DNA from: a virus
Length of the DNA: 64,000 bases
Direction: 5' to 3' (one strand)
IMG/VR virus record: IMGVR_UViG_3300036859_000186
Span: 1 to 64,000 of that record
Shown here: positions 2,541-32,873 of the stretch, in pieces
Layout of the letters: each line of letters opens with the position of its first letter
How positions within the stretch are numbered: the stretch's first letter is position 1
Notes under the pieces: model-generated
Seen by the model: the letters and a program-made list of their open reading frames with translations, nothing else
Databases searched by the model: none
Told to the model about the DNA's origin: nothing
Translations under genes and position numbers: made by a program

Positions 2541-2711
2541 CTAATGCAGCAAACCCCATCGTTGTCTAATGAGATAGTTTTCGCTATGTTTGCCTGTCAA
2601 CATGTATTGTGCGGCTGGGCAGAGTTGTTCGTGCTTGAGCTTTTCTTCTTCGGTTGAAAACGATGCCCCACAGATTGCCTGATGTTCACACTTTAGTGCA
2701 TCTGACCCCAT
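2541..2711 (-). CDS. small zinc-finger-like protein (56 aa)
   Basis: A 56-residue ORF starting at the ATG at 2711, overlapping the polymerase stop by 19 bases (GAGG six bases upstream). It carries C-x5-C and H-x3-C spacings (Cys8, Cys14, His27, Cys31), suggesting a single zinc-binding finger. It fills what otherwise looks like a 150-base gap. Confidence 0.5.
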   Translation of the reverse strand: MGSDALKCEHQAICGASFSTEEEKLKHEQLCPAAQYMLTGKHSENYLIRQRWGLLH

Positions 2712-13452: not shown

Positions 13453-14445
13453 ATGAACCTGTTTGATACGAACGCATCACCAATTCCTCCTCTAGAAAAG
13501 GTTGGAACACCTATCACTGCCCCTATCGAAGAGGGGCCTGTAGACTTAATTCCTGGACTGCTGCCACGAAAGGGCCAGCTCGTTATTGCGGGTGAGACCA
13601 ACGTAGGTAAGTCCCTCGTCGCTCTCGAAATTTGCTCCGCCCTGATTACTGGCGGGCCGCTCTGGGGTGAACTTCAACCGACCGCCCAGGCAAAGAAGAT
13701 CCTCTACATTCTTGGGGAGCACTACAACGAGGTCATTCAGAGATTGTGGCAGTATACTCACCTGCCTATGACGGACCAAGTATATCTCATCGGTCCTGAG
13801 CAGCTCGGATACGACAAGTGGCTGGTCGTCAATGGACGACCGAACCCTACGGGCATAAACAAGCTGACGCGATGGTCTGAGGGCGTTGATTTGGTGGTGT
13901 TTGACCCACTCGCGGCCTTCGTTTCTGGGGTCGATACCGAGAATGACAATATCACAATGCGTCTTGTCCTCGACAGCATGAGCGTCATCACGCAGAGGAC
14001 TGGGGCGAGCTGCCTTATCCTTGCACATCAGGGTAAGCCAATGATGGACAAGTTTGGAGCAGAGCATTCCCGCAAGAGCTACGCTATCAGGGGGGCCAGC
14101 GGTATCGAGGATGCGGCCACGAACATCTTCTATCTCAGCATGGCTGAGAAGGGGTCGTCGCAGGCCGCTCAGGAAACGGCTGACACCAAGATTCTCTCGC
14201 TCAGGTGCCGCAAGTATAAGGGGCTTGCTCCAGAGGAATACAAGCTCTCTCGGGACGAGAACACGTTGGTTCATACGCTCCTCGGCAACCGGCCTCACAC
14301 TGAAGTGCGGGCGATGGAAACGAAGAACAAATCAGGAAGGCTTCAGGCCGCGTTCCCTGAGATGAAGACCTCTGAGATCATCAAGATCTTGGCGGCAATC
14401 AACAACCAGTCAGACAATACAATCAGAAGCTACCTTGCCTCGTAA
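13453..14445 (+). CDS. RepA/DnaB-like hexameric helicase (AAA_25)
   Basis: 330 residues. Walker A GETNVGKS near residue 47, Walker B LVVFDPLAAF, and ILAHQGK as the following conserved strand, the order seen in RSF1010 RepA-like and AAA_25 phage ATPases. Probable replicative or accessory DNA helicase partnering the polymerase encoded on the opposite strand. SD GGAGGGAGC precedes ATG. It has its own promoter and terminator, so it is a single-gene transcription unit. Confidence 0.85.
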   Translation: MNLFDTNASPIPPLEKVGTPITAPIEEGPVDLIPGLLPRKGQLVIAGETNVGKSLVALEICSALITGGPLWGELQPTAQAKKILYILGEHYNEVIQRLWQYTHLPMTDQVYLIGPEQLGYDKWLVVNGRPNPTGINKLTRWSEGVDLVVFDPLAAFVSGVDTENDNITMRLVLDSMSVITQRTGASCLILAHQGKPMMDKFGAEHSRKSYAIRGASGIEDAATNIFYLSMAEKGSSQAAQETADTKILSLRCRKYKGLAPEEYKLSRDENTLVHTLLGNRPHTEVRAMETKNKSGRLQAAFPEMKTSEIIKILAAINNQSDNTIRSYLAS

Positions 14446-16209: not shown

Positions 16210-16656
16210 CTACCATCGCTCCCACCCAGGTAGCTGAATTTCGGTGTGGCACTTTGGGCACTGGTTCATGGGCCAGCCACCCTTGACTTGATTATCACGG
16301 GTGAATTCGAACTTCATGCCGCAAGGACATTGAACAATGGACAGCTCCATGTTCATTTCCTGAACGAGTTTGATGCACTTCGCGGCCATGGCCTTGTCGT
16401 AGCAGATGACAATAGGCTTTTCCAGGCCCTTGTCGGGGTCAGGTCCTACAAACCACCCTTCCCAGACACCGTAATACATCTGGCTGCCACATGAGCCACA
16501 CATGTGGCGAGTTTGGGGGTCATGGAAGCCGTCATAGTAGCCCTGAGCATCAAGGTAGCAGCTGCGGCCGCAATGCCTACACTCCACGAGATACTTGTCT
16601 CGCTCCTTTTCAATGAAGCGGGTGACTAGGCTGCCTCTTTTCTCTGTCCAAATCAT
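16210..16656 (-). CDS. multi-zinc-ribbon protein
   Basis: 148 residues with four Cys pairs: CRHC, CGSC, CPC and CPKC. Two zinc ribbons are likely, at residues 26-60 and 110-140. Such proteins often bind nucleic acids or RNA polymerase, but no specific family is recognised. Confidence 0.7.
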   Translation of the reverse strand: MIWTEKRGSLVTRFIEKERDKYLVECRHCGRSCYLDAQGYYDGFHDPQTRHMCGSCGSQMYYGVWEGWFVGPDPDKGLEKPIVICYDKAMAAKCIKLVQEMNMELSIVQCPCGMKFEFTRDNQVKGGWPMNQCPKCHTEIQLPGWERW

Positions 16657-19221: not shown

Positions 19222-19398
19222 CTAGCGGACAATCAGCTGTCCAGGTTGTGGCACAACGATCTTTGCAAGGACTAGGCCGATTTCCTTGGCTCGCTTGCAG
19301 ATTCTTGCGTGTTCAACGAGGCCGTCCGCGTCGATGTAGAACTCTTCGCCGCAGCTCTTACAGCCACGAATCTTCGTCGCGTTCGCTTGTGATCCCAT
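19222..19398 (-). CDS. small C2HC zinc-finger protein (58 aa)
   Basis: ATG at 19398 with GAAGG three bases before. Contains CKSCGEEF followed by H-x3-C, a classic C2HC finger, then a basic helix. Fills the space between 19213 and 19358. Confidence 0.62.
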   Translation of the reverse strand: MGSQANATKIRGCKSCGEEFYIDADGLVEHARICKRAKEIGLVLAKIVVPQPGQLIVR

Positions 19399-19711
19399 TG
19401 GCCTTCCCCCACTTGTTAAGAGCCGTCCAGTTGATGGTCCAGATATAAGCTCGGACCCGGTTGCCAGTGTTGGGATTTTTGTTCCATGATGTGAAGATCA
19501 CAGAGCCAAGGTCATTCTTCTCAATGAACTGGCGGAAGTTGTCGCCATACTTAGCGTTGGTTCCTGCTTCCGAAAAGACCGCGTATCGGAAGCGCTGGCC
19601 GTCACCCTCAGATTCCCGTAGGAATTCGAGCATGGCATCCTCGGAGTGGCGTATGCCGGAGAGGTTGTCGATCTCTCTCATCCCGCAGCACTGCATGTCT
19701 TGGAGATACAT
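19358..19711 (-). CDS. hypothetical protein, paralogue of 27113-27502
   Basis: 117 residues. The CG-x2-EI-x2-L start and the C-terminal half (F-x-FI...LG-VI...NP...W...LNK) align with the product of 27113-27502, so the phage has two copies flanking the amidoligase cluster. Unknown function; the shape (about 120 residues, conserved Trp/Asn) suggests a small alpha/beta domain. Confidence 0.65.
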   Translation of the reverse strand: MYLQDMQCCGMREIDNLSGIRHSEDAMLEFLRESEGDGQRFRYAVFSEAGTNAKYGDNFRQFIEKNDLGSVIFTSWNKNPNTGNRVRAYIWTINWTALNKWGKANGITSERDEDSWL

Positions 19712-19714
19712 CGG

Positions 19715-20659
19715 CTACTCCCTTCCCTGCGCCCATTGCCTAATGGCGTTGGCGTAAACGTCCACGCTTCCACCCTCAAGACCAGGAGCCCGGTTGACTT
19801 CCAGAACGATGAGGCTGCCATCGCGCTTTTCGCCGATGTCCACCGCACCGAAATCGAGACCAAGGGCCTCGACGGCTTCGTGGGCCAGATCACGGTGGGC
19901 CTGTCTAGAGGTTTGCCCATCGTAAAGGATGCGCCAACCCCCGTCCCATGACCTGATCCATGCGTGAGCACGTCGAGTCCCATTGGCACCGTCGAGAGAG
20001 AAGCCCTCTCTCAATGCCTTGACGCCAGCCCGGAGGCTGCGTCCCTTGAAGGAGTGAACCCGGACTTCCTGCACGAGGTCTTCCTTCTTTGCGTAGTAGT
20101 CGCCGCCACGGTTGGCGAGCAGGTCGTTCCCACCGACGTGACTGTTGGAGCGGCTGAGCCATTCTCCCACAGGTCGGCCCGGTTGTGCAACCGGAGCCGC
20201 GATTGCCAGGGCTCCAGTCAGTCCGTTCAGCTTGGCGAGGAGGTCGCGGACACCGTCCACGAGTGGTCCTCGACGGGGAAGAGGTCCCGCAGGGAGTGTC
20301 AGATTGACCAGTTCCTCGGCCGCTTCCTGGGCATCGCGCATGATGGCGATTGCAGGATCGACCGCAGCAGCCACCGGAGGAGGCGCTGCTGGGCGCTGGA
20401 GTGAGACCTGAATTGTTGGAACCCCTTCCCGCGCCAAGAGTTCGGCGTCGGAAAACTTGTTGCGGATGGTCGTGCCGTTCAGAACACGCACACCACGGAT
20501 TTCTGGGACCGCTTCACCCCAGGCAATGACCACGTCACCGGCACGGGCCTTGCGTTCGATGGGAACCTCAGTTCCTCGAAAGCGGCGAGCACCCTGTCCA
20601 AGCGCTTCCGCAAGCAGACGAGCCCCCGTAGAGGCGTTCTTTCTGTAAACGTAAATCAC
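19715..20659 (-). CDS. ATP-grasp ligase (RimK/phage amidoligase-cluster type)
   Basis: 314 residues starting at GTG 20659, chosen because GGAGG lies seven bases upstream and the fold begins VIYVYRKN. The C-terminal half carries the ATP-grasp landmarks: EVRVHSFKG, DFGAVDIG and IVLEVNRAPG with the Mg-binding Glu and Asn. ATP-grasp ligases make amide or ester bonds from carboxylates. With the amidotransferase and two amidoligases downstream it resembles the phiEco32-type predicted peptide-modification clusters. Confidence 0.82.
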   Translation of the reverse strand: MIYVYRKNASTGARLLAEALGQGARRFRGTEVPIERKARAGDVVIAWGEAVPEIRGVRVLNGTTIRNKFSDAELLAREGVPTIQVSLQRPAAPPPVAAAVDPAIAIMRDAQEAAEELVNLTLPAGPLPRRGPLVDGVRDLLAKLNGLTGALAIAAPVAQPGRPVGEWLSRSNSHVGGNDLLANRGGDYYAKKEDLVQEVRVHSFKGRSLRAGVKALREGFSLDGANGTRRAHAWIRSWDGGWRILYDGQTSRQAHRDLAHEAVEALGLDFGAVDIGEKRDGSLIVLEVNRAPGLEGGSVDVYANAIRQWAQGRE

Positions 20660-20690
20660 GACTATCCTCCCCGGCGCAGAAATCGCGCCG

Positions 20691-21008
20691 CTAATACCCT
20701 TGCCGTTTTCGGTAATTAACCCTCTTCTGCTCACGCTGCTTCCAACCACTGAGCCACTGTGTGTAACGGTAGGGCCACGTCGGAAAGATGAAGCCGAACG
20801 TCACAATTGTCACTGCGTAAGAGACTACGCAGACTATCGCCGCAACCCACGTCAGAACGAGGTCAAAGAACGATATGGGATAGAACGTCACGAACGCCTT
20901 ACCGGGAGACTGGCCATGGATTACGAGGAAGCCAATGAGCCGGAGAAGGAACAAGGCCGCAGCGGCCAAGCCAATTATGACGAGGATAAGAGCCACGATT
21001 CCCCACAT
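20691..21008 (-). CDS. membrane protein with three hydrophobic segments
   Basis: 105 residues from ATG 21008 with AAGGAG upstream. Hydrophobic spans at about 2-30, 45-65 and 70-88, then a basic tail. Unknown. Confidence 0.65.
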   Translation of the reverse strand: MWGIVALILVIIGLAAAALFLLRLIGFLVIHGQSPGKAFVTFYPISFFDLVLTWVAAIVCVVSYAVTIVTFGFIFPTWPYRYTQWLSGWKQREQKRVNYRKRQGY

Positions 21009-21009
21009 G

Positions 21010-21165
21010 TTAGGCTCCTTTCTTGGCCCCACAGACGGTGCAGACCCAGCCGTTGTCTTTGGCGGCAAGGTTGTGGACCCTCATGCCAGGACCATACTTC
21101 TTGTCCTGGTATTCGTGAACGCAAGTGCAACCTCGCACGGAGGTAGCTTTCTTAGGATCAGCCAT
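21010..21165 (-). CDS. small zinc-ribbon protein (51 aa)
   Basis: ATG 21165 with AGGAGGAG upstream. CTC near residue 14 and VCTVCG at the end form a zinc ribbon. Confidence 0.65.
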   Translation of the reverse strand: MADPKKATSVRGCTCVHEYQDKKYGPGMRVHNLAAKDNGWVCTVCGAKKGA

Positions 21166-21481
21166 AGGACTCCTCCTTTGTAGCGGGGCTGCCTTTGTCA
21201 TCTTCCCACTGATCAAGAAACATTTGCACATCAACAGTGATGTTCTTGAGATCGGTCAAAGCCGTGCCACTCACAGGTCGTTTGGCCATTGCTCGTTTAA
21301 TTTGACTCTCGAAACTGTCGAGACACTCGTCCAGAAGTTCAAGGGCTACCTGAAGGTCTGCTTCCAGACTTTCAGTATAAGCGACGTATTGATCGTCGTG
21401 CTCAATGCTCACCTCGACGACCGTCTCACCTTCTTTGGCTGGCGGTTTGTCGGGCTCCGGCACCATGTCGCATAGTCGCAT
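21158..21481 (-). CDS. hypothetical acidic helical protein
   Basis: 107 residues from ATG 21481 (GAGGG upstream), Glu/Asp-rich with a coiled-coil-like middle. Unknown. Confidence 0.6.
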   Translation of the reverse strand: MRLCDMVPEPDKPPAKEGETVVEVSIEHDDQYVAYTESLEADLQVALELLDECLDSFESQIKRAMAKRPVSGTALTDLKNITVDVQMFLDQWEDDKGSPATKEESYG

Positions 21482-21482
21482 G

Positions 21483-22592
21483 TTAACCCTCATCATCCCC
21501 AATGAGCGGAGCATTATTCCAAGCAATACGCTCATCGGGCTGGAGTGCTTGAGGAGGAGCCGCAGGTTGCGGCATACGACCCTCTTCAAGAATCATCCGA
21601 CGAAGTTGCTCCATTGCCAGGGCATGATCTTCTTGCTGTTGTGCTTGGATTTCACCTCGTCCGATTCCCGCCCATTCCCGGCGGTTCAGCACTGGTCGTG
21701 GATCATCCGGCTCAAGCCGATCTCGCTCAAATGGAGCAGGTTCGGGGAACGGTTGAGGGGGTGCTGGCATATGGAATACCGCTGCACCACCACGTCCTAC
21801 TGCACGACCGGCCCGACCAACCTGTGCAGGTCGTGGGACATCAAAGGGACCATCGAGGTCCAGGCCCAAGCGACGGCCCGCTACGGCTCCACCGAATTGT
21901 GCATCAGGTGGTCGCACCGGCTGAGGAAGCGGTTGCCCGTCCTCGGTGTGCTGACCGCAGTTGACCTTCTTCGAGTGCAGATTCTTGTAGCCTCGACCCA
22001 ACGTGACTGGCGCTTCACAGAAGTCACATGCCACAGCTTGGGGTCGAACACAGTGGTGGCAGTAGAGGATGGTCCGCCCATCATCCCGACCCACAGTGAC
22101 CATTTCACCCTCGTTTAGCTTCCGGGAGCAAACGCCACACTGAGTTTCGGTGAGATTGGAGGCCGCCAACTTGGCCATCTCGTCGGGTCGCAGGAGAACT
22201 TGACGCAACTGACGGATGACCTTCCCAGACAGAGTGTTGGCTGGAAATGGAAGCTGAAGGACCGCAGCGAGTTTGTCGATGAGGTCTCCATCCTCTCCTT
22301 TGTATTCCTGCCCAAGCTGCTCCAGAGCAAGGTTGATCATGGTCTTCCACGAGGTCCGACCCGGATCTTCGTCCGTGCCGTCGTAGAACTGGAGATGACC
22401 CCAGTTGCCGAACTTGAAGACCCCGTCCAACTGTTTGTAAGGGTCCACATAGTCTCGTGAACTGAACCGCCCGTCCTTGTAACTACGCCAGACGTTGGCG
22501 TGGACATCCTCAAAGCGTGCGCCAGCACCGTGCTCCAGGTAGAGCATGGCGATAACAGCTCGCTTCAGGTAGTCGTTGTAAAGCCTGATCAT
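21483..22592 (-). CDS. zinc-finger protein with proline-rich tail
   Basis: 369 residues from ATG 22592 (GGGAGGAAC upstream). First ~100 residues are a helical domain (MIRLYNDYLKRAV...), then CGVC, CHHC and CDFC pairs at about 150-190. The last half is low-complexity Pro/Arg/Ala. An upstream GTG (22670) is in frame but lacks an SD. Unknown; lies directly after the glutamine amidotransferase gene. Confidence 0.7.
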   Translation of the reverse strand: MIRLYNDYLKRAVIAMLYLEHGAGARFEDVHANVWRSYKDGRFSSRDYVDPYKQLDGVFKFGNWGHLQFYDGTDEDPGRTSWKTMINLALEQLGQEYKGEDGDLIDKLAAVLQLPFPANTLSGKVIRQLRQVLLRPDEMAKLAASNLTETQCGVCSRKLNEGEMVTVGRDDGRTILYCHHCVRPQAVACDFCEAPVTLGRGYKNLHSKKVNCGQHTEDGQPLPQPVRPPDAQFGGAVAGRRLGLDLDGPFDVPRPAQVGRAGRAVGRGGAAVFHMPAPPQPFPEPAPFERDRLEPDDPRPVLNRREWAGIGRGEIQAQQQEDHALAMEQLRRMILEEGRMPQPAAPPQALQPDERIAWNNAPLIGDDEG

Positions 22593-22602
22593 TGTTCCTC
22601 CC

Positions 22603-23817
22603 TTACAACCGTCCTTGAAAATGGACCCCACGGACGAAGTCGTTTCGGCGTCGTTCTCGCTCCGACTCACAATCTGGCATTACACCGGATGCGAGCTGTT
22701 GTTCTAATGGAAGGTCCCGGTGCCGTCCTGCGACCCATCGTTGGGCAGAGCGAGCCACGACCCCTGCTGGCGGAGTTCGTCTCTCAGCCATCTCAGGAAT
22801 TTCGGGAATTGATGGATCGGTGGCGGGGGCCGCATCGCCGGTCCAGTGTTTCTGAGCGGCGGCAGAGTTCCCCCCTGCCGCACTTTTGTAATGGGCGGGT
22901 AGAACCCCTAGTGGATCAGGGTTTTGCCGCCCTTCTGCTCCAACTTCGTTTGCATCACGAACAAGGCTTCCAAGTCTTTGTGATACGCCTTCTTCGCCGC
23001 CTTCCACTTCCTCCGACCGATCTTCTTCGCCCGATACAGCCTCGTCGCCTCGGCGAAAGGTTGTCCCAGGCGGGAGGGAACCTCCGGTCCCCTTAGTCCG
23101 TTTCGTGGATTCTTGTGAGGCCCCAGGGCTCCTGGACCCATTCTTGTCCGTTCCAGTGCTGTCTCCCGTTGCCCCCACCGTAGGGCGGTCATCGTCCTTG
23201 CGACCTCCCTGGTTGTTCACATATCCCACGTTCCGGGATACGCCCCGAAACTCCCAGTGCTTGTTGCTGCACCACACCTCCTCACTCATCGACCAGGGTC
23301 CGCCGAACAATTCCAGCTGGCCCTTGGGCGTGAAGACGACGACCTTCTCGTCGATCATTTCGAGGATGCCAAGACCGTAGTGATGGGCGAGCCAGGCCAT
23401 CGTGCGGCTGTCGCTCCACTTCCCGGAGGGAAGCTTGAATCCCACGTTCTTGACGGCGGCTTCAAGGGCAACGTCCTTGTATTTGCCCCAGTGGCCGTTG
23501 TGAAACAGCACCGGATTGGGTCCTTGACCCTCGATGGTTGTGGTCGCGTTCTCGTCCACCACGAACGGGTGGGTGAGGAAGCGAGATGGCCCACCGCAGC
23601 TTGCGATGCGAAAGTGGAGCACGTAAGGCAGCGGAATCTCTTTGGCAAGGTCCTGGATTTCCCCAAGTTCCATGCCCTTCTTCCACTGCACCCAGGGCTC
23701 ACCCTTGGGACCCTCGACACGCCAAGCGGCACCGGCCCCCTCAGCGTTCGTTTCGTAGGCCCTCTCGATCATGCTCTCGGTTGGGCGCTTCTTCTCTGCA
23801 ATGAAAATGACACACAT
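22603..23817 (-). CDS. class II glutamine amidotransferase
   Basis: 404-residue frame beginning MCVIF, so the processed N-terminal Cys2 is the catalytic nucleophile. LHFRIAS and LFHNGHWG follow in the order of class II (Ntn) glutaminases. The first ~190 residues are this domain; it would release ammonia from glutamine for the neighbouring ligases. After about residue 200 the frame becomes low-complexity, and codon bias moves to another frame that ends at 22908, so the native C-terminus is doubtful (see findings). Confidence 0.82.
   Translation of the reverse strand: MCVIFIAEKKRPTESMIERAYETNAEGAGAAWRVEGPKGEPWVQWKKGMELGEIQDLAKEIPLPYVLHFRIASCGGPSRFLTHPFVVDENATTTIEGQGPNPVLFHNGHWGKYKDVALEAAVKNVGFKLPSGKWSDSRTMAWLAHHYGLGILEMIDEKVVVFTPKGQLELFGGPWSMSEEVWCSNKHWEFRGVSRNVGYVNNQGGRKDDDRPTVGATGDSTGTDKNGSRSPGASQESTKRTKGTGGSLPPGTTFRRGDEAVSGEEDRSEEVEGGEEGVSQRLGSLVRDANEVGAEGRQNPDPLGVLPAHYKSAAGGNSAAAQKHWTGDAAPATDPSIPEIPEMAERRTPPAGVVARSAQRWVAGRHRDLPLEQQLASGVMPDCESERERRRNDFVRGVHFQGRL
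22704..22883 (-). CDS. hidden small protein (59 aa) within the amidotransferase frame
   Basis: A GTG at 22883 opens a 59-residue frame with G/C-rich third positions and a normal amphipathic composition (FPKFLRWLRDEL). It begins 25 bases after the alternative stop at 22908. Likely real if the amidotransferase ends at 22908. Confidence 0.4.
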   Translation of the reverse strand: MRQGGTLPPLRNTGPAMRPPPPIHQFPKFLRWLRDELRQQGSWLALPNDGSQDGTGTFH

Positions 23818-23889
23818 GGTGAATGCTGCCTCCTAGGGGCACAAAGCGCCCCGTTAAAGTGCCAGTTAACGGACTTCTACCCCTTCTTT

Positions 23890-24630
23890 CTAGACGTTGA
23901 CTCTCCGATGAACGATGAGCGGCTCGTCGTCGAGAGCGACACCCCCCACCACTGCACGCTCTCTCCTGGCCGTTGCCACCAGGAAAGCATTCGTGATTCT
24001 CATGATCTCCTGCACCGCTTCCAACCCTTGTTCGGGGGTCTTCATCATTGGCAGGAGTCTGCACTCAGCCGTCGTGTAACGGCCATAGCAGTAGTTGACG
24101 ACCGAATACCGATTGCCCTCACGGTTCTGGTCGAAATCCTTGGCCGCGTTCGTCGCTTGTTCGTCGGCACTGAAGATGTGCTGACAATAGCGGCTCTTCC
24201 CAGCAAGGCGGTCCCAGATGGCGTGGTCTTTGGGAAGACCAACCTTCTTGGCCCATAGCTCCACCTCAGCCAGAATCGTGGCCGGGTAGGTGTTCACCAT
24301 GATGCGCTGGTAGCTCATGGCGTTCTTGAACGATAGATGGACGTGCATGCCGCAGGTCTGGTTCACAGCCTGCGGATAGAACTTCGCCATCCATCCGGGC
24401 AGCTCTTCGGGTGACAGTGGTGGAGACGGCAGCTCTCCTATGTGGACAATGGGATGATCCTGATCGAGAGAATCCCCATGTCCCACATGAACAGAGCCGT
24501 CGTGACCGATGCGTGTTCCTGCAGGGATCTTAGTCCAACCCCCCTCCAGCTCCACGCCAACCTTGTAAACCCGATTGAACCTCACCCGAATGCCGCTCAA
24601 ATCAATCGGCTTTCCGAGTTTCCCTGCCAT
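23890..24630 (-). CDS. amidoligase (PF12224-type, glutamine-synthetase-like fold)
   Basis: 246 residues: VGVELEGG at 24-31 (Mg-binding Glu), HDGSV at 43-47, CGMHVHLS at 93-100 and TAECRLLP later. These are the conserved strands of the phage amidoligase family, distantly related to glutamine synthetase. They are predicted to join an amino group to a carboxylate with ATP. SD GAGGAAAAG before ATG. Co-transcribed with the GAT-II gene. Confidence 0.85.
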   Translation of the reverse strand: MAGKLGKPIDLSGIRVRFNRVYKVGVELEGGWTKIPAGTRIGHDGSVHVGHGDSLDQDHPIVHIGELPSPPLSPEELPGWMAKFYPQAVNQTCGMHVHLSFKNAMSYQRIMVNTYPATILAEVELWAKKVGLPKDHAIWDRLAGKSRYCQHIFSADEQATNAAKDFDQNREGNRYSVVNYCYGRYTTAECRLLPMMKTPEQGLEAVQEIMRITNAFLVATARRERAVVGGVALDDEPLIVHRRVNV

Positions 24631-24754
24631 TGCTTTTCCTCCCCTCCCCCAAAGATGAGGGAAAAATCCACCTCGACCCTCTCAACAAACGACGTTGGCG
24701 ACGCTTTGCGTTCTCTCGCAAGCGTCTCTCCATATCGGCAGAGCGCTTGGTCAT
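24602..24754 (-). CDS. small Arg-rich protein (50 aa)
   Basis: ATG at 24754 with AGGA upstream; extremely Arg/Lys-rich first half (ERRLRENAKRRQRR). It ends inside the start of the amidoligase gene. Possibly nucleic-acid-binding. Confidence 0.42.
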   Translation of the reverse strand: MTKRSADMERRLRENAKRRQRRLLRGSRWIFPSSLGEGRKSNGRETRKAD

Positions 24755-24755
24755 G

Positions 24756-25286
24756 TTACGGCATTTCCTGGGTGCTCACGAGGACATACATGTCCACGGG
24801 CTTCAGGAACTCCTGGTAGAGCGCCCTTGAGGCGTCCTCGATCTTCTTTGCGATGGCTTGCACCATCTCAGTGGTGTAGACGCCCTTGACGCTGAAGGTC
24901 ACACCCTCAGCTTCAGAGATGCCCACGAGCCTCAGGAAGCTCATGTTAATGCAGTCGTATTCGTCATGGAACAGCAGCCGATCTCCAGGCTTGTCCAAAC
25001 GATACGCGGAGCCCAGCTTCCGGCCGACGATGTTCGTCAGGCCCCCATCATTCGCCATGTGATAGCAAGCAAGAGGCTTCGCATCCTCCCCAGTCTGGCC
25101 GACCCAGTAGCGAGCCATAGCCCGCACTTCCATGATATCGCCGGTTCCGATGGCCTTCATGAAGGCTTCGACTTTGGGGTGAGCCCAGATATTGATGCTC
25201 AGTCCTTCGTGGTTGCGGCGAATCCGTGTTCTGATGCACTGCTCGCCACGGGCGTTCTTCTCGATCTGGATGATGTTCGGTTCCAC
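24756..25286 (-). CDS. hypothetical protein in amidoligase cluster
   Basis: 176 residues, mixed alpha/beta, no recognisable motif. Its place between the two amidoligase-family genes suggests a partner or substrate protein, by context only. Confidence 0.65.
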   Translation of the reverse strand: MEPNIIQIEKNARGEQCIRTRIRRNHEGLSINIWAHPKVEAFMKAIGTGDIMEVRAMARYWVGQTGEDAKPLACYHMANDGGLTNIVGRKLGSAYRLDKPGDRLLFHDEYDCINMSFLRLVGISEAEGVTFSVKGVYTTEMVQAIAKKIEDASRALYQEFLKPVDMYVLVSTQEMP

Positions 25287-25297
25287 TGCAGTCCTCC

Positions 25298-25492
25298 CTA
25301 AAAACTGAACGGCTTCGCCTCAACAGGGACGCCGGGGTCTTGAATGACGGGACGGACGACACCATCCTTGCATCGGACAGTGCCATTCTCGTTGAATTTA
25401 TGTTCGCACTGATAGCATCCACCGCACCGCGAGCAGCGATACGGGAAGATCCTATCATCGTGTTCATCGTGCACTTGGCACTTTAAGTTCAT
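25298..25492 (-). CDS. Cys/His-rich small protein
   Basis: 64 residues with C-x2-H-x2-H and CSRCGGCYQC, enough ligands for two zinc ions. Unknown. Confidence 0.6.
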   Translation of the reverse strand: MNLKCQVHDEHDDRIFPYRCSRCGGCYQCEHKFNENGTVRCKDGVVRPVIQDPGVPVEAKPFSF

Positions 25493-25715
25493 GAAGCAAC
25501 CTCGTTCTGGTTTCGAGATCGACTTGCAAGGCTTCCATCATCTGGAGGGACGCACCAAGCCTCTTTGACAGGTCATTGAGACTCTGCCCGGCTCCAGTAG
25601 CGGCACGAACGTTGTCGATGACAATAGACGCCTCTTCAAGCGTGTTCCTTACAGAGTGCCACGGATGAAGGACCATCCGCCGAAGAGTCGCTTTGTTGCG
25701 TCGGTTTATGTCCAT
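25464..25715 (-). CDS. hypothetical helical protein
   Basis: 83 residues, basic N-terminus and amphipathic helices. ATG at 25715 preferred; a GTG at 25736 is in frame. Overlaps both neighbours. Confidence 0.55.
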   Translation of the reverse strand: MDINRRNKATLRRMVLHPWHSVRNTLEEASIVIDNVRAATGAGQSLNDLSKRLGASLQMMEALQVDLETRTRLLHELKVPSAR

Positions 25716-25870
25716 GGCGTTTGGATTCCCAGGCACGCTCCATGATTGGCCGTCTCGAAGTAGAGCCCAAAGGCACCCTCGTAAGAGAAGACTCGAATCA
25801 TGAGCTGACCAGTGGGCCGCTTTTTGAAGCGTCCGATCTTCCAGAGGTCAACGATGAGGGGATTTCTCAT
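25706..25870 (-). CDS. hypothetical protein (54 aa)
   Basis: ATG at 25870 overlaps the stop of the COOH-NH2 ligase gene as ATGA. Beta-rich, unknown. Confidence 0.55.
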   Translation of the reverse strand: MRNPLIVDLWKIGRFKKRPTGQLMIRVFSYEGAFGLYFETANHGACLGIQTPWT

Positions 25871-26907
25871 GATCGAGCCACCGTCTTCTGGAGGAAGTTT
25901 TCCCATCCGCACTCGTGGCCCTCGGGCAGCGTCGTCCAATGCTTCATGGGATCATCAGGGAACCATGCTTCGAGTCCGTCGGTATCGATCTTGGCAACGA
26001 ACTTCTGGAACTGCTTCAGTTCGTGACCAGCCGATAGCCCTCGGTCCGTATTTCCTCCGACGTGGGCTTCGAGGAATTGGGAGAACTTCTCGAAGTTTGC
26101 CTTGGCAAGCCCCACGTCATTGAGGTTGATGGCCCGTCGAACCCTTGGGAGCGGCACCATTCCACGGAGAGTCTTCTCCGCTTCCCAGCGCTTCTCGCCC
26201 ATGATGTCGCTCACCAAACGCCCCAACCCCATCACGAAGGACATGAGCGGGTAAGCTCGAAGCCAGGTGTTGGAGAGCGTTCGGTATTCGACGCCGAAGG
26301 GTTGCTCACGGAACTCACCAGCCCGTCCGTAGACGCGCCGACGAGTTCGCATGAGAGGGTGTCGGTCAAACAGCACCGCTGTGTTGCCGATCACGATGTC
26401 ACAGAGCGCAACGAAGCGCTCATAGCCATCCTCCTCGTGAAGGAGTTCGTTGATGTTGCCGAAGTGCAGGTGCCCACCAGCGGACCGCGTTCGATACGTG
26501 AACGGGTTCACACGGACACCAACCTGCCGCTTGTAAATGCTCTTGCTTGGATTGCACCCAAGCATCTTGACCCGATCAGGCATGGCGTCCATGTCCCGTT
26601 TCGGGATGCGAATCACCGGAGTCCAACAGACCGTGAGGTCGGTGTCTTCCAGTTTGTGCTGAAGGCGACGCATGATGTCGGCCATCATATTGCCAATCTC
26701 AGCACGACAGAACGCTGCCTGTGGGTTGATCTCCAGCTGGATGCCGTCTCGGACGATCTTGCCGAGCCCCTTGAGTTTCATCCCTGCTTCTGGAATCAGC
26801 TCGGACGATGGAACGATGTGACCGTTCCGCGCCAAGAACAACTCTGGGTCCGAACCGAACGATGGATCGGAGTTGTTCTCCACCAATTTCGCATACTGCA
26901 AAGCCAC
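25867..26907 (-). CDS. phage COOH-NH2 ligase type 2 (amidoligase superfamily)
   Basis: 346 residues starting at GTG 26907 (GGGGAGGAAG upstream). GSDPELFL at 18-25, DGIQLEINP at 54-62, AGGHLHFG near 145 and GVEYRTLS near 220 match the phiEco32-like COOH-NH2 ligase family (PF14395). The acidic and histidine residues correspond to the metal/ATP site. With the ATP-grasp, GAT-II and PF12224 genes it completes a predicted amide-bond-forming system. Confidence 0.87.
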   Translation of the reverse strand: MALQYAKLVENNSDPSFGSDPELFLARNGHIVPSSELIPEAGMKLKGLGKIVRDGIQLEINPQAAFCRAEIGNMMADIMRRLQHKLEDTDLTVCWTPVIRIPKRDMDAMPDRVKMLGCNPSKSIYKRQVGVRVNPFTYRTRSAGGHLHFGNINELLHEEDGYERFVALCDIVIGNTAVLFDRHPLMRTRRRVYGRAGEFREQPFGVEYRTLSNTWLRAYPLMSFVMGLGRLVSDIMGEKRWEAEKTLRGMVPLPRVRRAINLNDVGLAKANFEKFSQFLEAHVGGNTDRGLSAGHELKQFQKFVAKIDTDGLEAWFPDDPMKHWTTLPEGHECGWENFLQKTVARS

Positions 26908-27112
26908 GACTTCCTCCCCGCCGCGAAAATCGCGGCACCAACGCTGCCTTTACTCAGCACTGGCTTGTGTGAAATGTGTGGACAAGAGATTGCGAGGGAC
27001 CATTTTTATCGCCAAAGATAACGGTCCCAATTCGGCCCACAACGGTTTCTGACACACAAAGGGATTTCAACGGCCCAGTCTAAGGCCCCTTGTAGCTGAC
27101 TCCGCCGACTGA

Positions 27113-27502
27113 CTAGTAACGTTCTGTCGTCTTGCTGACTTTCCCTTCCTTCGTCCACTGCGCGATCAGCTTGTTCAGCTGAGTGTAGTCCGGGTTCCAC
27201 ACCACCACGGTTGAGCTGTGGGGAGGATGCACCGGATTCTTGACGAACTCAGAGCGAATGACCGCTCCGAGCTTGTGCTCGGTGACGAACGCCATGAAGG
27301 CGTCCGCATAGAACTTGTGTTCCCCGAGCCACTTCTTGTAGTTCGTGCCCCAGTCCGTCACGTCGGCGAGACACAAGATGATGCACGGCGACCGCATACC
27401 CTTCTTGAGGGCGGCAGCCAGATACGTCTCAAGACTGTCGGCATGGCACAGCCCGCCGATCTCCTGGACGCCACAGTTCTCGACGTAACCCGTTTGTCCC
27501 AT
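27113..27502 (-). CDS. hypothetical protein, paralogue of 19358-19711
   Basis: 129 residues from ATG 27502 (GAGGAG upstream), whose N-terminus then lines up with the paralogue. An ATG at 27541 touching the Rsr stop is the alternative. Located between the Rsr gene and the amidoligase genes. Confidence 0.65.
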   Translation of the reverse strand: MGQTGYVENCGVQEIGGLCHADSLETYLAAALKKGMRSPCIILCLADVTDWGTNYKKWLGEHKFYADAFMAFVTEHKLGAVIRSEFVKNPVHPPHSSTVVVWNPDYTQLNKLIAQWTKEGKVSKTTERY

Positions 27503-27540: not shown

Positions 27541-29145
27541 TTAGACTCTCTCCGCGATGAAGTCGCTGACGATCTGGGGAGCGGCAGAATCGAATCCAGC
27601 CACGTCCAGCGTGCGACGGTCGTCCGGGTCGGCGATGGTGAAGTTCGTCGAGGTCATACCCATGACCACTTCGCAAGCGGCCGGGACGCCCATCTTCTGG
27701 CGATACTGACGGAGGGCTTGCGACGGATGGATGGCACCGGCGTAGGTCTCGTTGTCGGTGATGATGACGAAGCCATCGACCTCAACGCGGTTTTCCATGG
27801 CCCACAGGACGGGCTGAGCGCAGTCGGTGCGGCCGAAGTTGTTGCGCTGTGCAGCTCGGCACACCTCATCGAGGCGCATCTTGGGGGTGATGCCGAGGTC
27901 CACGAAGCGGTCGCAGAACCCGAACGTGTAGTAGTCCTTCTCGACCTTGGCGGTTGCCATCGCCATAGCAGCAGCACCCTCACAGGCACTCAACGGCATG
28001 TTGGCAATTGCGGCTGTCCGCATCGAGCCAGACACGTCGATGCCGAAGACGATCCGTTTGCCGGTCGGCTTCAGAGACTTGAATGCCAGGTAGAACGCAT
28101 CATCGAGAGCGTCCACAACAGCAGGCACTGGCTTCCACGCACCATCACCCCTGACGCCGTGACCAGACGCGTAGGTCTTGAGGGCGATGAGGATCTCGAT
28201 GGGGTGGACGCGTGCCTTGTTCAGCCATTCCTTGTCACCAAGGACAGCGACAACCTTGCGCGAGGCGTCCGAGAGGGGCGCGAGAAGGCCACACTTGGAG
28301 AGGTTGCCCAGGTTGCGGATCATCGCAGTTGCAGGCATCTTCTCCAAAAGAGCAGCCCACACGTCGGGGTCCTTCAGGAATTCGGTGGGGACCATCTCTC
28401 GCGTGAGGCCGTGATTCTGGATGAGTCGGCAGAGGTCACGGGCTGACTCGGCTGACTTGGCAGCCTCAAAGCCTACGATGACCTGGGGAAGCGTGGGTCC
28501 GTCTGCCTTGTGTCCCTCGATGCCATCAACGCACCATTTGAAGATAGCGTTCCGAGCTTCATCTGAAGTCTTCGGGTGCGCCAATCTGAGGACATCCGCA
28601 TTGGACCAGCCGTCCCTCGACTGATACTTGACGACGTGTTGGGCGAGCTTTTCCGTCGGAAGGTCAAGATACCAGTTCGCCAGGGAACTCCGAAGGCCGC
28701 GCCCCAACCCACGAAATGTCGTGACGAAGGCCATGAAATGAAAGAGGTGCGTGGGGATTCGGCAGACCTTCGGGAGAGCAGCCAGTGCCAGCTTTCGAGT
28801 GGCAGGATCTGCAGCAGACGCTGCAAGAGCCAAGGCGAAAATCGCAGGATCGTTCTTCGGTGCTCGTCCTTCATCGGATACCTCCACGATGGTGCGGACC
28901 ACTCTGGCACCATCCGCTTCGATACACCGGATGGTTCGTGCCGCATTCTCCCTCGTCAGTTTCTGAGGAGACGCGTAGTAGCTCCCACCCTCACTGCCGA
29001 GGATCAGGAACCGCAGGAACGCTGCGAAGTCGTCAAGGGCATAGACGTAGCCCCCGGCGCTGTTCTGAACCTGAGCCTCACCCAGGAGTGGTGAAGTCTG
29101 AGGCTGGGCAACACGCGGCCCAATCGAGCTGAACGGTCTCTTCAT
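27541..29145 (-). CDS. rsr: Ro60/Rsr-like TROVE-domain RNA-binding protein
   Basis: 534 residues. The N-terminal ~355 residues match the TROVE domain (SPLLGEAQVQNSAGGYVYAL..., then LGSEGGSYY), a HEAT-repeat ring that binds Y RNAs and misfolded RNA. Residues 366-534 are a von Willebrand A domain with an intact MIDAS: Asp370-x-Ser372-x-Ser374, Thr440 and Asp464. Bacterial Rsr works with a Y RNA and PNPase in RNA decay. A Y-RNA-like element lies at 36181-36322 on the same strand. Confidence 0.92.
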   Translation of the reverse strand: MKRPFSSIGPRVAQPQTSPLLGEAQVQNSAGGYVYALDDFAAFLRFLILGSEGGSYYASPQKLTRENAARTIRCIEADGARVVRTIVEVSDEGRAPKNDPAIFALALAASAADPATRKLALAALPKVCRIPTHLFHFMAFVTTFRGLGRGLRSSLANWYLDLPTEKLAQHVVKYQSRDGWSNADVLRLAHPKTSDEARNAIFKWCVDGIEGHKADGPTLPQVIVGFEAAKSAESARDLCRLIQNHGLTREMVPTEFLKDPDVWAALLEKMPATAMIRNLGNLSKCGLLAPLSDASRKVVAVLGDKEWLNKARVHPIEILIALKTYASGHGVRGDGAWKPVPAVVDALDDAFYLAFKSLKPTGKRIVFGIDVSGSMRTAAIANMPLSACEGAAAMAMATAKVEKDYYTFGFCDRFVDLGITPKMRLDEVCRAAQRNNFGRTDCAQPVLWAMENRVEVDGFVIITDNETYAGAIHPSQALRQYRQKMGVPAACEVVMGMTSTNFTIADPDDRRTLDVAGFDSAAPQIVSDFIAERV

Positions 29146-30593: not shown

Positions 30594-31037
30594 CTATTCA
30601 TCCCTTATGGTCTTGTGCCAGAAGGCAACGGTGTTCTTGGTCCGCTTGTTGAAAAATTCGAACCCCTTCCACCAGCCAAACTTTTCGAGGATGTGAGCCT
30701 CAGCTGGGTTGCCAGTCATGTTGACCGTAGCAGCGAGGCTCGAATATCCGAACTCTCTGGCGATGGCTTCCTTGAAGGGCATCAGTGCTTGAGCAATACC
30801 CTGCTTTTGATGCTTCGTTTCGACCCATGTCTTGGTGCTCACGAGCACACCGCAACAGTTGACCTGCTCGACGAGGGTAAAGCCGCATGCCCGTTCGTTG
30901 TTCAGGAAGCCCGTGAACTCCAACAGGAACGGACTCTTGCGGATGCGGATCTGCACGTCGCCCCACTCGTAGAACTCCTCACTGAGGGTTCTAATAGATG
31001 CAACGGCCTTTGGCACGTCACGAATTGAGAATGGCAT
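30594..31037 (-). CDS. GNAT-like acyltransferase
   Basis: 147 residues; QKQGIAQALMPFKE is the acetyl-CoA-binding motif A (Q/R-x2-G-x-G/A variant) and AATVNMTGNPAEAHILEKFGW the motif B region with the usual N-x3-A...LEK.GF. Probably acetylates an amine; GNATs occur with amidoligase clusters in phages, but this one lies 4 kb from the ligases. Confidence 0.75.
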   Translation of the reverse strand: MPFSIRDVPKAVASIRTLSEEFYEWGDVQIRIRKSPFLLEFTGFLNNERACGFTLVEQVNCCGVLVSTKTWVETKHQKQGIAQALMPFKEAIAREFGYSSLAATVNMTGNPAEAHILEKFGWWKGFEFFNKRTKNTVAFWHKTIRDE

Positions 31038-32054: not shown

Positions 32055-32873
32055 CTAACGACTTGGCATGAGAATTGGATGACCCTCGTCACCAACCTCC
32101 TTGTAAAGCGCTTCTTTCAGCTGATACATAGCTCGTGCCCACAGCGCTACTGCGTCCGGTGAGGCCGCTTGCAGCACCATTGGGAATTCCCGAGCTGTCT
32201 TCTTGAAGTAGTTCTCTGCCCAACGACGGGCATCCTTCGGCTTGATTCGACAGCCCTCAGGCTTCGTGAGCATTCGAGTCATGTCGTTCAGGTTGTCGGC
32301 CCGGTCTAGAGTCTTAAGTGAGGCCGCGTCCTGATCGTTCGATATCTTCGAGTAGTAGACCACCTTCATGGCCGCTTGAAGGTCTTCGGGCGTCTCGTCC
32401 TTCCAATCCTTCGTGAGGAGCATGACAAGATCGACCGTTCGGTCTGGGAACTTTAACGCAATGAGGTCGTGCTGCATGATATAAGTGTCTTCCACCACAT
32501 CGTGGAGCAATGCTGCTGCCTGTGCTTCCTCATTGAGGCCGATGTCACGAGCCATCTCGAACACCCGAATGGGATGCACGATGTATGGGTCATCGAAGGC
32601 TTTACGCTTCTGTGAGATGTGTGCAGCCGTCGCACACTCCAGCGCTACATTGATGAGCGTATCGCCTTCAGGTTCAGCCACAGGAATCTCCGTATAGGGT
32701 GGTCGCGTCCTAATCAAGTGGTGCTTGCAGACAGGGCAGTCGCCCCAGCTGTAAGTCTCTGAATGGACGGGGTGAGCGATGGGGATTAGGCACCACTCAC
32801 ACCACAATTCATCTGCCATAGCACTAGTTCCTTCGAGGAACAAAAGCTTTTCGTCGAGTGAGCGCCAAGGCAT
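32055..32873 (-). CDS. zinc-ribbon plus HD-domain phosphohydrolase ((p)ppGpp hydrolase-like)
   Basis: 272 residues. N-terminal CEWC...CPVC zinc ribbon (about 23-50), then a RelA/SpoT-type HD domain: HISQKRKAFDDPYIVHP, LLHDVVEDT and TLDRADNLNDM, providing the His, His-Asp and Asp metal ligands. MESH1-like proteins with this core hydrolyse (p)ppGpp or related nucleotides. The start in a TGATG overlap is used; ATG 32819 is the alternative. Confidence 0.8.
   Translation of the reverse strand: MPWRSLDEKLLFLEGTSAMADELWCEWCLIPIAHPVHSETYSWGDCPVCKHHLIRTRPPYTEIPVAEPEGDTLINVALECATAAHISQKRKAFDDPYIVHPIRVFEMARDIGLNEEAQAAALLHDVVEDTYIMQHDLIALKFPDRTVDLVMLLTKDWKDETPEDLQAAMKVVYYSKISNDQDAASLKTLDRADNLNDMTRMLTKPEGCRIKPKDARRWAENYFKKTAREFPMVLQAASPDAVALWARAMYQLKEALYKEVGDEGHPILMPSR

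What the first reader, a model, noticed from the sequence alone, without database searches (positions are those of the whole stretch)
19358..27502. Amide-bond-forming cluster: ATP-grasp, GAT-II and two amidoligases
Within 8 kb on one strand lie an ATP-grasp ligase (19715-20659), a class II glutamine amidotransferase (22603-23817), a PF12224-type amidoligase (23890-24630) and a COOH-NH2 ligase type 2 (25867-26907). Several unknown zinc proteins are interspersed, and a GNAT lies at 30594. Such combinations were predicted in phages like phiEco32 to make peptide-like tags or modify proteins or surfaces, but their products are not established. Here an additional paralogous pair (19358 and 27113) brackets the set.
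Basis: partly seen in the sequence, partly recalled or inferred. Interest (0 to 1): 0.75.

Follow-up and report, generated by a model that had tools for sequence, protein, structure and literature searches.

The report
Divergent phage amide-bond ligase cassette
This phage carries a distant version of a known but never biochemically solved set of phage genes that join amino acids by amide bonds, together with a small protein family that turns out to be a repeated partner of that set and gives a new handle on what it does.

Summary
The COOH-NH2 ligase and the ATP-grasp are certain (PHROG 1.6e-35 and 4.9e-25). The amidoligase and class II GAT miss curated cut-offs, but relatives, profile comparison and (amidoligase) a glutamine-synthetase-like model support both. 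Of 80 IMG/VR loci fetched with the ligase, 59 hold all four enzymes, always on one strand, median span 4.8 kb. The gene order is that of Pseudomonas phage tf and the phiEco32-like Bas87. So this is a divergent member of a published cassette whose predicted role (envelope or peptide modification) I found no test of. It differs: no gamma-glutamyl cyclotransferase or C26 hydrolase was found, and the bracketing pair (19358, 27113) are true paralogues of a family without Pfam or PHROG entry. That 'CCG' family recurs with the cassette (8 of 13 close loci; 15 of 15 loci found with a second subfamily's own profile) and is predicted as a small, tentatively Alba-like domain. The GNAT at 30594 is not part of the set. 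The product stays unknown. The GAT gene seems to change frame near 23.15-23.2 kb, after its catalytic domain.

The parts
25867..26907 (-). COOH-NH2 ligase type 2 (glutamine-synthetase-like), subfamily with a C-terminal extension
   Evidence: PF14395 2.2e-10, phrog_3815 1.6e-35; alignments A3 and A17 keep GxDPExF, ExxP, RSAGGHxH, EYRTLSN
24756..25286 (-). 176-aa unknown protein between the ligase and the amidoligase; relatives in 5 of 88 loci, just before the amidoligase in all 5; not related by sequence to the ~200-aa protein in this slot elsewhere
   Evidence: hhalign to the H200 family 1.7%
23890..24630 (-). amidoligase_2-like enzyme, predicted glutamine-synthetase / YbdK-type fold
   Evidence: AlphaFold pTM 0.73; best Z 9.6 to glutamine synthetase, rmsd 3.6 over 171; YbdK first in Foldseek, E 7.6e-3
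22603..23817 (-). class II glutamine amidotransferase; catalytic domain about 23240-23817; the C-terminal part of this frame is probably not the real tail
   Evidence: Cys2 and GAT-II motifs; profile match to phage GATs; 1te5 is the only solved relative found; frame question
22908..23192 (-). overlapping frame that carries a tail resembling the GAT tails of L012 and L014
21483..22592 (-). 369-aa protein with two conserved CxxC pairs (zinc-binding type); same slot in L012, L014, L023
19715..20659 (-). ATP-grasp carboxylate-amine ligase, RimK / D-Ala-D-Ala ligase-like C-terminal end
   Evidence: phrog_2599 4.9e-25, 99.9% to the Klebsiella phage Asterion enzyme, solved relatives D-Ala-D-Ala ligase and RimK
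19358..19711 (-). CCG-family protein, copy 1, predicted small alpha/beta domain, tentatively Alba-like
   Evidence: 8 of 13 close loci; AlphaFold pLDDT 86, pTM 0.78; fold search
27113..27502 (-). CCG-family protein, copy 2 (paralogue of 19358), upstream of the ligase
   Evidence: hhalign 98.2% to the family built without it; alignment A14

Best explanation
The region is a divergent copy of the phage amidoligase cassette known from phiEco32-, LUZ24- and tf-like phages. It most likely encodes a soluble pathway, made in the infected cell, that builds one or a few amide (gamma-glutamyl or isopeptide type) bonds. The two glutamine-synthetase-like enzymes would activate a carboxylate as an acyl phosphate and join it to an amine. 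The class II GAT would release ammonia from glutamine for one of them, most simply the amidoligase encoded next to it. The ATP-grasp enzyme would add a further amino acid or attach the product to its target. The most likely target is a cytosolic peptide such as a cell-wall precursor or another small glutamate-containing peptide. In this lineage CCG-family proteins accompany the set while the usual cyclotransferase and hydrolase are missing; they are probably a partner that binds a substrate, the product or an enzyme. SHOWN: enzyme families, gene order, conservation of the set, recurrence of the CCG family. INFERRED: chemistry per enzyme, division of labour, cytosolic action. NOT KNOWN: substrate, product, benefit.
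For: Family matches. Gene order equal to tf and Bas87, and close to Slicky01, Asterion and RIO-1. All four enzymes in 59 of 80 loci and at least three in 65 of 80, one strand in 59 of 59, spans 3.9-9.5 kb. Close clade with the window's own order in L012, L014, L021, L023. Catalytic motifs kept. Amidoligase model glutamine-synthetase-like. ATP-grasp nearest to solved D-Ala-D-Ala ligases and RimK, all carboxylate-amine ligases. Gamma-glutamyl-cleaving families beside the cassette elsewhere, cyclotransferase in 36 of 80 and C26 in 40 of 80 loci, point to a gamma-glutamyl product.
Against: The amidoligase and the GAT of this window do not reach Pfam cut-offs by themselves. The GAT frame may be interrupted after its catalytic domain. 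The window lacks the cyclotransferase and hydrolase, so the gamma-glutamyl argument comes only from relatives. The ATP-grasp glycine-rich loop is diverged (HVGGND against HSGxGI). No expression, substrate or product data exist here. Cell-wall targeting rests on others' predictions.
Confidence: 0.6

Rival explanations
1. Peptide tag on proteins: the ATP-grasp and the ligases add glutamate or other residues to a host or phage protein (RimK-like tagging), and the GAT amidates the tag.
For: ATP-grasp nearest to RimK among NCBIfam models and to RimK and D-Ala-D-Ala ligase among solved structures; R2K-type ATP-grasps of phages are predicted to modify host proteins (PMC7824862 passages; PMC4431377 passages).
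Against: No conserved acceptor protein with a fixed C-terminus was noticed in the neighbourhoods; cyclotransferase and C26 families (36 and 40 of 80 loci) fit small peptides better than proteins.
Confidence: 0.2
2. Glutathione-like small molecule: the ligases make a soluble gamma-glutamyl peptide used for redox balance or detoxification during infection, which the cyclotransferase and C26 enzyme recycle.
For: The amidoligase model matches YbdK and bifunctional glutathione synthetase chains in Foldseek; RIO-1 has a glutaredoxin gene two genes after the ATP-grasp; cyclotransferase and C26 neighbours.
Against: Glutaredoxin was seen in one phage record only; most of the fold matches are glutamine synthetases, a fold that serves many substrates; the window itself lacks the recycling enzymes.
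Confidence: 0.2
3. Nitrogen salvage: the genes only raise glutamine or amino-acid supply (auxiliary metabolic genes).
For: Proposed for the ZRK32 phage, which carries the same set (PMC10945688 passages; L010 order).
Against: Two dedicated amidoligase-type enzymes and an ATP-grasp in fixed order are not needed for bulk nitrogen supply; in the passages read, the ZRK32 claim rests on growth with phage preparations, not on the enzymes.
Confidence: 0.08
4. Decayed cassette: in this phage the genes are a relic with a frame-shifted GAT.
For: The conserved GAT tail lies in another frame.
Against: The catalytic domain is intact in one open frame; the other three enzymes are full length and keep their motifs; a single assembly error would explain the tail.
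Confidence: 0.07

Closest known systems
phiEco32 / LUZ24 / tf-type phage amidoligase cassette (called peptidoglycan modification cassette in PMC5498523)
   Same: COOH-NH2 ligase, unknown protein, amidoligase_2, class II GAT, ATP-grasp in the same order and strand (UFV-P2 table in PMC3890496)
   Different: window enzymes are only 16-31% identical to those of the aligned phage records; no cyclotransferase or C26 found; extended ligase C-terminus; 369-aa CxxC protein and CCG proteins added
GAT/amidoligase pair of OM43 phage MEP402
   Same: the only GAT of the compared phage records found by phmmer with the window GAT (8.2e-5); an amidoligase is encoded just before it
   Different: no COOH-NH2 ligase or ATP-grasp found in the MEP402 stretch examined (8,897 bases)
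Glutamine synthetase / YbdK (glutamate-cysteine ligase type) fold
   Same: amidoligase model Z 9.6, rmsd 3.6 over 171 residues, to glutamine synthetase
   Different: much smaller (246 aa) and only about 9-16% identical over the aligned residues
Alba-type nucleic-acid-binding proteins
   Same: best fold matches of the CCG model (Z 8.0, rmsd 5.3 over 101; Z 7.6, rmsd 3.0 over 89)
   Different: no sequence match; extra CCG and NPN motifs; Z not far above unrelated GNAT rows (6.0)

Membership tests
phage amidoligase cassette (phiEco32/LUZ24 type) | COOH-NH2 ligase type 2 (PF14395) | tested here: met
   40.7 bits, cut-off 25
phage amidoligase cassette (phiEco32/LUZ24 type) | collinear order ligase > unknown > amidoligase > GAT > ATP-grasp on one strand | tested here: met
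   window against tf and Bas87 and L012, L014, L021, L023
phage amidoligase cassette (phiEco32/LUZ24 type) | gamma-glutamyl cyclotransferase and/or C26 hydrolase nearby (present in 36 and 40 of 80 loci, so not universal and not taken as defining) | tested here: not met
   family HMMs give no hit in the window or in L002; the record may be incomplete
phage amidoligase cassette (phiEco32/LUZ24 type) | placed just before the primase/helicase | tested here: inconclusive
   a helicase-type gene lies at 13453-14445 but on the other strand, about 5 kb beyond the set
Amidoligase_2 (PF12224) | direct match to the Pfam model | tested here: not met
   no hit for the window protein; 4 of 10 members of alignment A9 match, best 2e-27. 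I therefore write amidoligase_2-like
Amidoligase_2 (PF12224) | family motif columns and profile similarity | tested here: met
   14 of 19 invariant columns; profile 94.8%, E 5.2e-8
glutamine-synthetase-like fold | fold of the amidoligase model | tested here: met
   all 50 rows shown are glutamine synthetases or complexes of them, except YbdK
class II glutamine amidotransferase | Cys after the initiator Met, HxR, HPF, HNG, D in the SDSR motif (motif roles recalled) | tested here: met
   alignments A5 and A11
class II glutamine amidotransferase | direct match above a Pfam GATase cut-off | tested here: not met
   GATase_6 12.3 bits against 27; 6 of 8 aligned members match GATase_6 at E 0.01 or better
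ATP-grasp carboxylate-amine ligase | C-terminal ATP/metal motif (FGAVDI ... EVNxAPG; role recalled) | tested here: met
   alignments A4 and A13
R2K ATP-grasp clade | two lysines in the RAGNYA part | not tested
   R2K_3 and RimK score alike and below cut-off; the lysines were not mapped
Alba superfamily (CCG protein) | Alba fold | tested here: inconclusive
   top rows are Alba proteins, Z 8.0 and 7.6, Foldseek E no better than 9e-3, no sequence match

The most novel reading that the evidence does not exclude
The CCG protein is a working part of the cassette that has gone unrecognised: an acceptor, carrier or specificity subunit (invariant Cys and Asn, Alba-like nucleic-acid-binding type fold) that brings the ligases to their target. 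The target could then be an RNA or nucleoprotein, or a peptide carried on the protein itself, rather than the cell wall as predicted since 2009.
Probability: 0.15. Interest if true: 0.8.

Novelty: new variant of a known kind. Interest (0 to 1): 0.5.

Why it matters
The cassette is widespread: 311 of 50,697 phage records hold a relative of this ligase. Its product has been a prediction since 2009, and I found no experimental test of the enzymes in the passages of the papers read or in the search listings. The window adds a distant lineage that shows which parts are kept (two amidoligase-type enzymes, GAT, ATP-grasp) and which can be lost, and a small protein family whose recurrence with the cassette makes it a natural bait for finding the substrate. 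If the function were solved, hypothetical proteins in many Pseudomonas and Escherichia phages would gain one.

Tried and rejected
GNAT 30594 as a cassette member: no relative in 88 loci. The small ORFs between the enzymes (20691, 21010, 21158, 25298, 25464, 25706) as conserved parts: none found in the 88 loci, apart from one hit for 21010. H176 as the same protein as the ~200-aa protein of that slot elsewhere: hhalign 1.7%. A cyclotransferase or C26 gene elsewhere in the phage: no hit. The top two viral fold matches of the CCG model are proteins of LUZ24 and tf; tf carries the cassette and LUZ24 is named as a carrier in PMC5498523. I guessed that the tf one is tf_13 from its length of 125 aa; by sequence tf_13 is not supported as a relative (hhalign 1.2%, E 0.044, though best of 14 tf proteins), so this stays a lead. 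Defence system: no PADLOC match for 8 window proteins. Close relatives of the ligase by a single-protein scan: none. CCG proteins in annotated phage records: none for two probes. Solved relatives of the COOH-NH2 ligase and the CCG family by sequence: none credible. Ro60-linked Y RNA near 27-33.5 kb: only the tRNA plus chance-level rows. RIO-1 as a carrier of the CCG protein: no gene annotated between its cyclotransferase and GAT. Iyer 2009 and Hardies 2013 are not held; I know them only through citing papers and recall.

Counts include near-duplicates: L011 and L015 encode the same CCG protein, L049 and L051 the same one, L112 and L113 show the same coordinates. The 80 loci are the best 80 of 455 confirmed, so they lean towards relatives of this ligase; many are cut by contig ends and none was dropped for that. 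The close clade (L011-L023) was set by the gap in E-values. Alignment A14 left out the CCG ORF L014:16443-17033, and A18 also left out two of the four CCG ORFs of L094.
Full report
OBSERVATION. The window is bases 1-64000 of a 76,344-base virus record with phage genes: a P22-like portal, a terminase, a capsid protein, DNA polymerase A and a Dam methylase. The COOH-NH2 ligase passes its Pfam cut-off (PF14395, 2.2e-10) and matches phrog_3815 (1.6e-35). The ATP-grasp matches phrog_2599 (4.9e-25); its Pfam matches are below cut-off. The amidoligase has no direct family match and the GAT only a sub-threshold one.

TESTING THE WEAK ONES. Against seven phage amidoligases the window protein keeps 14 of 19 invariant columns. 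The profile of the window and its five closest relatives matches the phage profile at 94.8%, E 5.2e-8. A wider set of ten (A9, four of whose members match PF12224 themselves) gives 99.1%. The AlphaFold model (pTM 0.73) finds YbdK first in Foldseek, though at E 7.6e-3, and VIA-align gives glutamine synthetases at Z 9.6-8.4, rmsd about 3.4-4.0 over 165-183 residues. The GAT keeps Cys2 and the HFR, HPF, HNG and SDSR motifs and its clade matches other phage GATs at 87.8%, E 3.3e-6, over 79 columns; the only solved relative by profile is 1te5 (E 0.002). The ATP-grasp clade matches the Asterion enzyme at 99.9% and solved D-Ala-D-Ala ligases and RimK.

THE SET IS A KNOWN CASSETTE. In Pseudomonas phage tf and Escherichia phage Bas87 the order is COOH-NH2 ligase, unknown, amidoligase, GAT, small unknowns, ATP-grasp, then the cyclotransferase. 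Klebsiella phage Asterion, Slicky01 and RIO-1 have the same enzymes with the GAT first. The UFV-P2 paper lists the same row of genes (PMC3890496, passages). PMC5498523 (passage) describes a seven-gene peptidoglycan modification cassette in RIO1-like phages with a predicted role against superinfection. PMC10580990 and PMC11318856 (passages) repeat the phiEco32 superinfection idea citing Iyer 2009, which is not held. PMC10945688 (passages) proposes nitrogen metabolism for the ZRK32 phage. PMC3517423 and PMC6209634 (passages) only name the genes. None of the passages I read reports an assay of the enzymes.

HOW CONSERVED. A scan of IMG/VR with the ligase alignment gave 455 confirmed relatives, of which 80 were kept. 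Of those 80: amidoligase 64, GAT 69, ATP-grasp 60, all four 59, three or more 65, ligase alone 11. In the 59 full sets all genes are on one strand and span 3.9-9.5 kb, median 4.8 kb. Among named phages, 311 of 50,697 records hold a match to the ligase and 311 to the ATP-grasp; I did not check that they are the same 311.

WHAT IS DIFFERENT HERE. Thirteen loci (L011-L023) are much closer to the window's ligase than the rest (E 1e-77 to 1e-43 against 6e-26 and weaker). Four of them (L012, L014, L021, L023) repeat the window's order including the 176-aa protein, and three of these also hold the 369-aa CxxC protein. The cyclotransferase and C26 families occur in 3 and 2 of these 13, against 33 and 38 of the other 67, and the ~200-aa H200 protein in 0 against 51. 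None of the three was found in the window or the last 13 kb of the record.

THE CCG FAMILY. The proteins at 19358-19711 and 27113-27502 are paralogues (98.2% when the second is left out of the profile; alignment). The family has an invariant Cys in a CCG/NCG/SCG motif near the N-terminus and an invariant Asn in an NPNxGN-type motif. By the iterated search from the window protein it is in 8 of 13 close loci and 0 of 67 others; with a wider profile that includes the second subfamily, 5 of 67 others. It also lies near the ligase in L101, a bacterial MAG contig found with the ligase, and in L094, found with the ATP-grasp. Of the three MAG loci, the other two showed no CCG hit. A scan with four CCG proteins gave 4 loci: 3 on contigs already known and L100, where it sits beside a cyclotransferase and the ligase. 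A second subfamily (HGGxCCG) was seen in seven loci. A scan with its own profile gave 15 loci, 11 on new contigs; 12 of 15 show the ligase, and the other three (L106, L107, L111), which end soon after, show the cyclotransferase beside the CCG gene, so 15 of 15 hold cassette genes. In 13 of the 15 the cyclotransferase lies just before the CCG gene; it is missing in L108, whose stretch starts there, and in L118, where the CCG profile itself did not score at 1e-4. The two subfamilies are related: profile comparison 94.2%, E 1.2e-7 over 102 columns; an earlier comparison with seven members aligned only the first 22 columns (64.9%). The seeds came from cassette loci, so near relatives share context by descent; this is strong recurrence, not proof of function.

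CCG FOLD. The model is good (pLDDT 86, pTM 0.78). The best fold matches are Alba-type proteins: Z 8.0 (rmsd 5.3 over 101), 7.6 (3.0 over 89), 6.9 (2.8 over 89); the first unrelated row, an acetyltransferase-type protein, has Z 6.0. Foldseek E-values are no better than 9e-3. I treat Alba-like as tentative. Among viral models the first two are proteins of LUZ24 and tf (E 3.0e-3 and 5.5e-3), both cassette carriers, but the sequence test with tf_13 failed. The family has no credible Pfam, PHROG or NCBIfam match (chance-level scores only) and no match in the annotated phage records for two probes. Whether it is in print I cannot say beyond one paper search that used the word Alba.

MECHANISM. From the families (established knowledge, recalled): glutamine-synthetase-like and ATP-grasp ligases activate a carboxylate as acyl phosphate and transfer it to an amine; class II GATs release ammonia from glutamine. 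Two such ligase types, a GAT and an ATP-grasp in one gene row imply successive amide bonds on one substrate. Cyclotransferase and C26 enzymes in related cassettes cleave gamma-glutamyl bonds, so a gamma-glutamyl product is likely. I noticed no conserved acceptor protein or transporter among the recurrent families, so a soluble substrate is the simplest. Cell-wall precursor, protein tag and small peptide remain open.

A FLAW IN THE GENE. After its catalytic domain the GAT frame diverges from its relatives, and an overlapping frame (22908-23192) carries a tail like those of L012 and L014 (PFAEATRLYRAKKIGRRKWKAAKKAY against PFEQAITLFQEKKISKKQFKKARRVY in L012). Either the contig has an indel near 23.15-23.2 kb or the tail is a separate reading. 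The catalytic part is not affected.

VERDICT. A real, well-placed observation of a known but unsolved cassette, in a divergent form, with one new element, the CCG family. Interest 0.5; new variant of a known kind.

Noticed in passing
window 27541-29145 (-): A Ro60/TROVE RNA-binding protein with its vWA domain (PF25045 1.6e-60, PF05731 4.2e-40) lies directly upstream of the set. Such genes are in 360 of 50,697 phage records, mostly actinobacteriophages, best 48% to Gordonia phage Cashline. No Y RNA was found nearby.
   Followed up: partly
window 22908-23192 (-), inside 22603-23817: Probable frame change in the GAT gene after its catalytic domain; the conserved tail is in another frame.
   Followed up: partly
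window 30594-31037 (-): GNAT acetyltransferase (PF00583 2.8e-5) without relatives in the 88 cassette loci.
   Followed up: yes
window 53822-55123 (+): The major capsid protein matches only 5 of 50,697 phage records, best 36% to an unnamed spring-water phage, others from Microbacterium and Cellulosimicrobium phages. With the Ro60 match this hints at an actinobacterial host, unproven.
   Followed up: partly
window 2693-5488 (-): DNA polymerase A with an N-terminal uracil-DNA-glycosylase-like domain in one protein (PF00476 1e-26, PF03167 1.7e-18).
   Followed up: no
window 16210-16656 (-): Small protein with a weak match to the LysW-type zinc ribbon (PF21344 E 0.0026, below cut-off), of interest because LysW is an amino-group carrier for an ATP-grasp ligase (recalled).
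   Followed up: no
L094:12777-15048: Four CCG-family ORFs in a row downstream of a cassette.
   Followed up: no
L004:8998-9591: The ~200-aa unknown protein family (phrog_11055, no function) occurs in 51 of 80 cassette loci, typically between ligase and amidoligase.
   Followed up: partly
window 32055-32819 (-): HD-domain protein (HD_4 1.9e-10), possibly a nucleotide phosphohydrolase.
   Followed up: no
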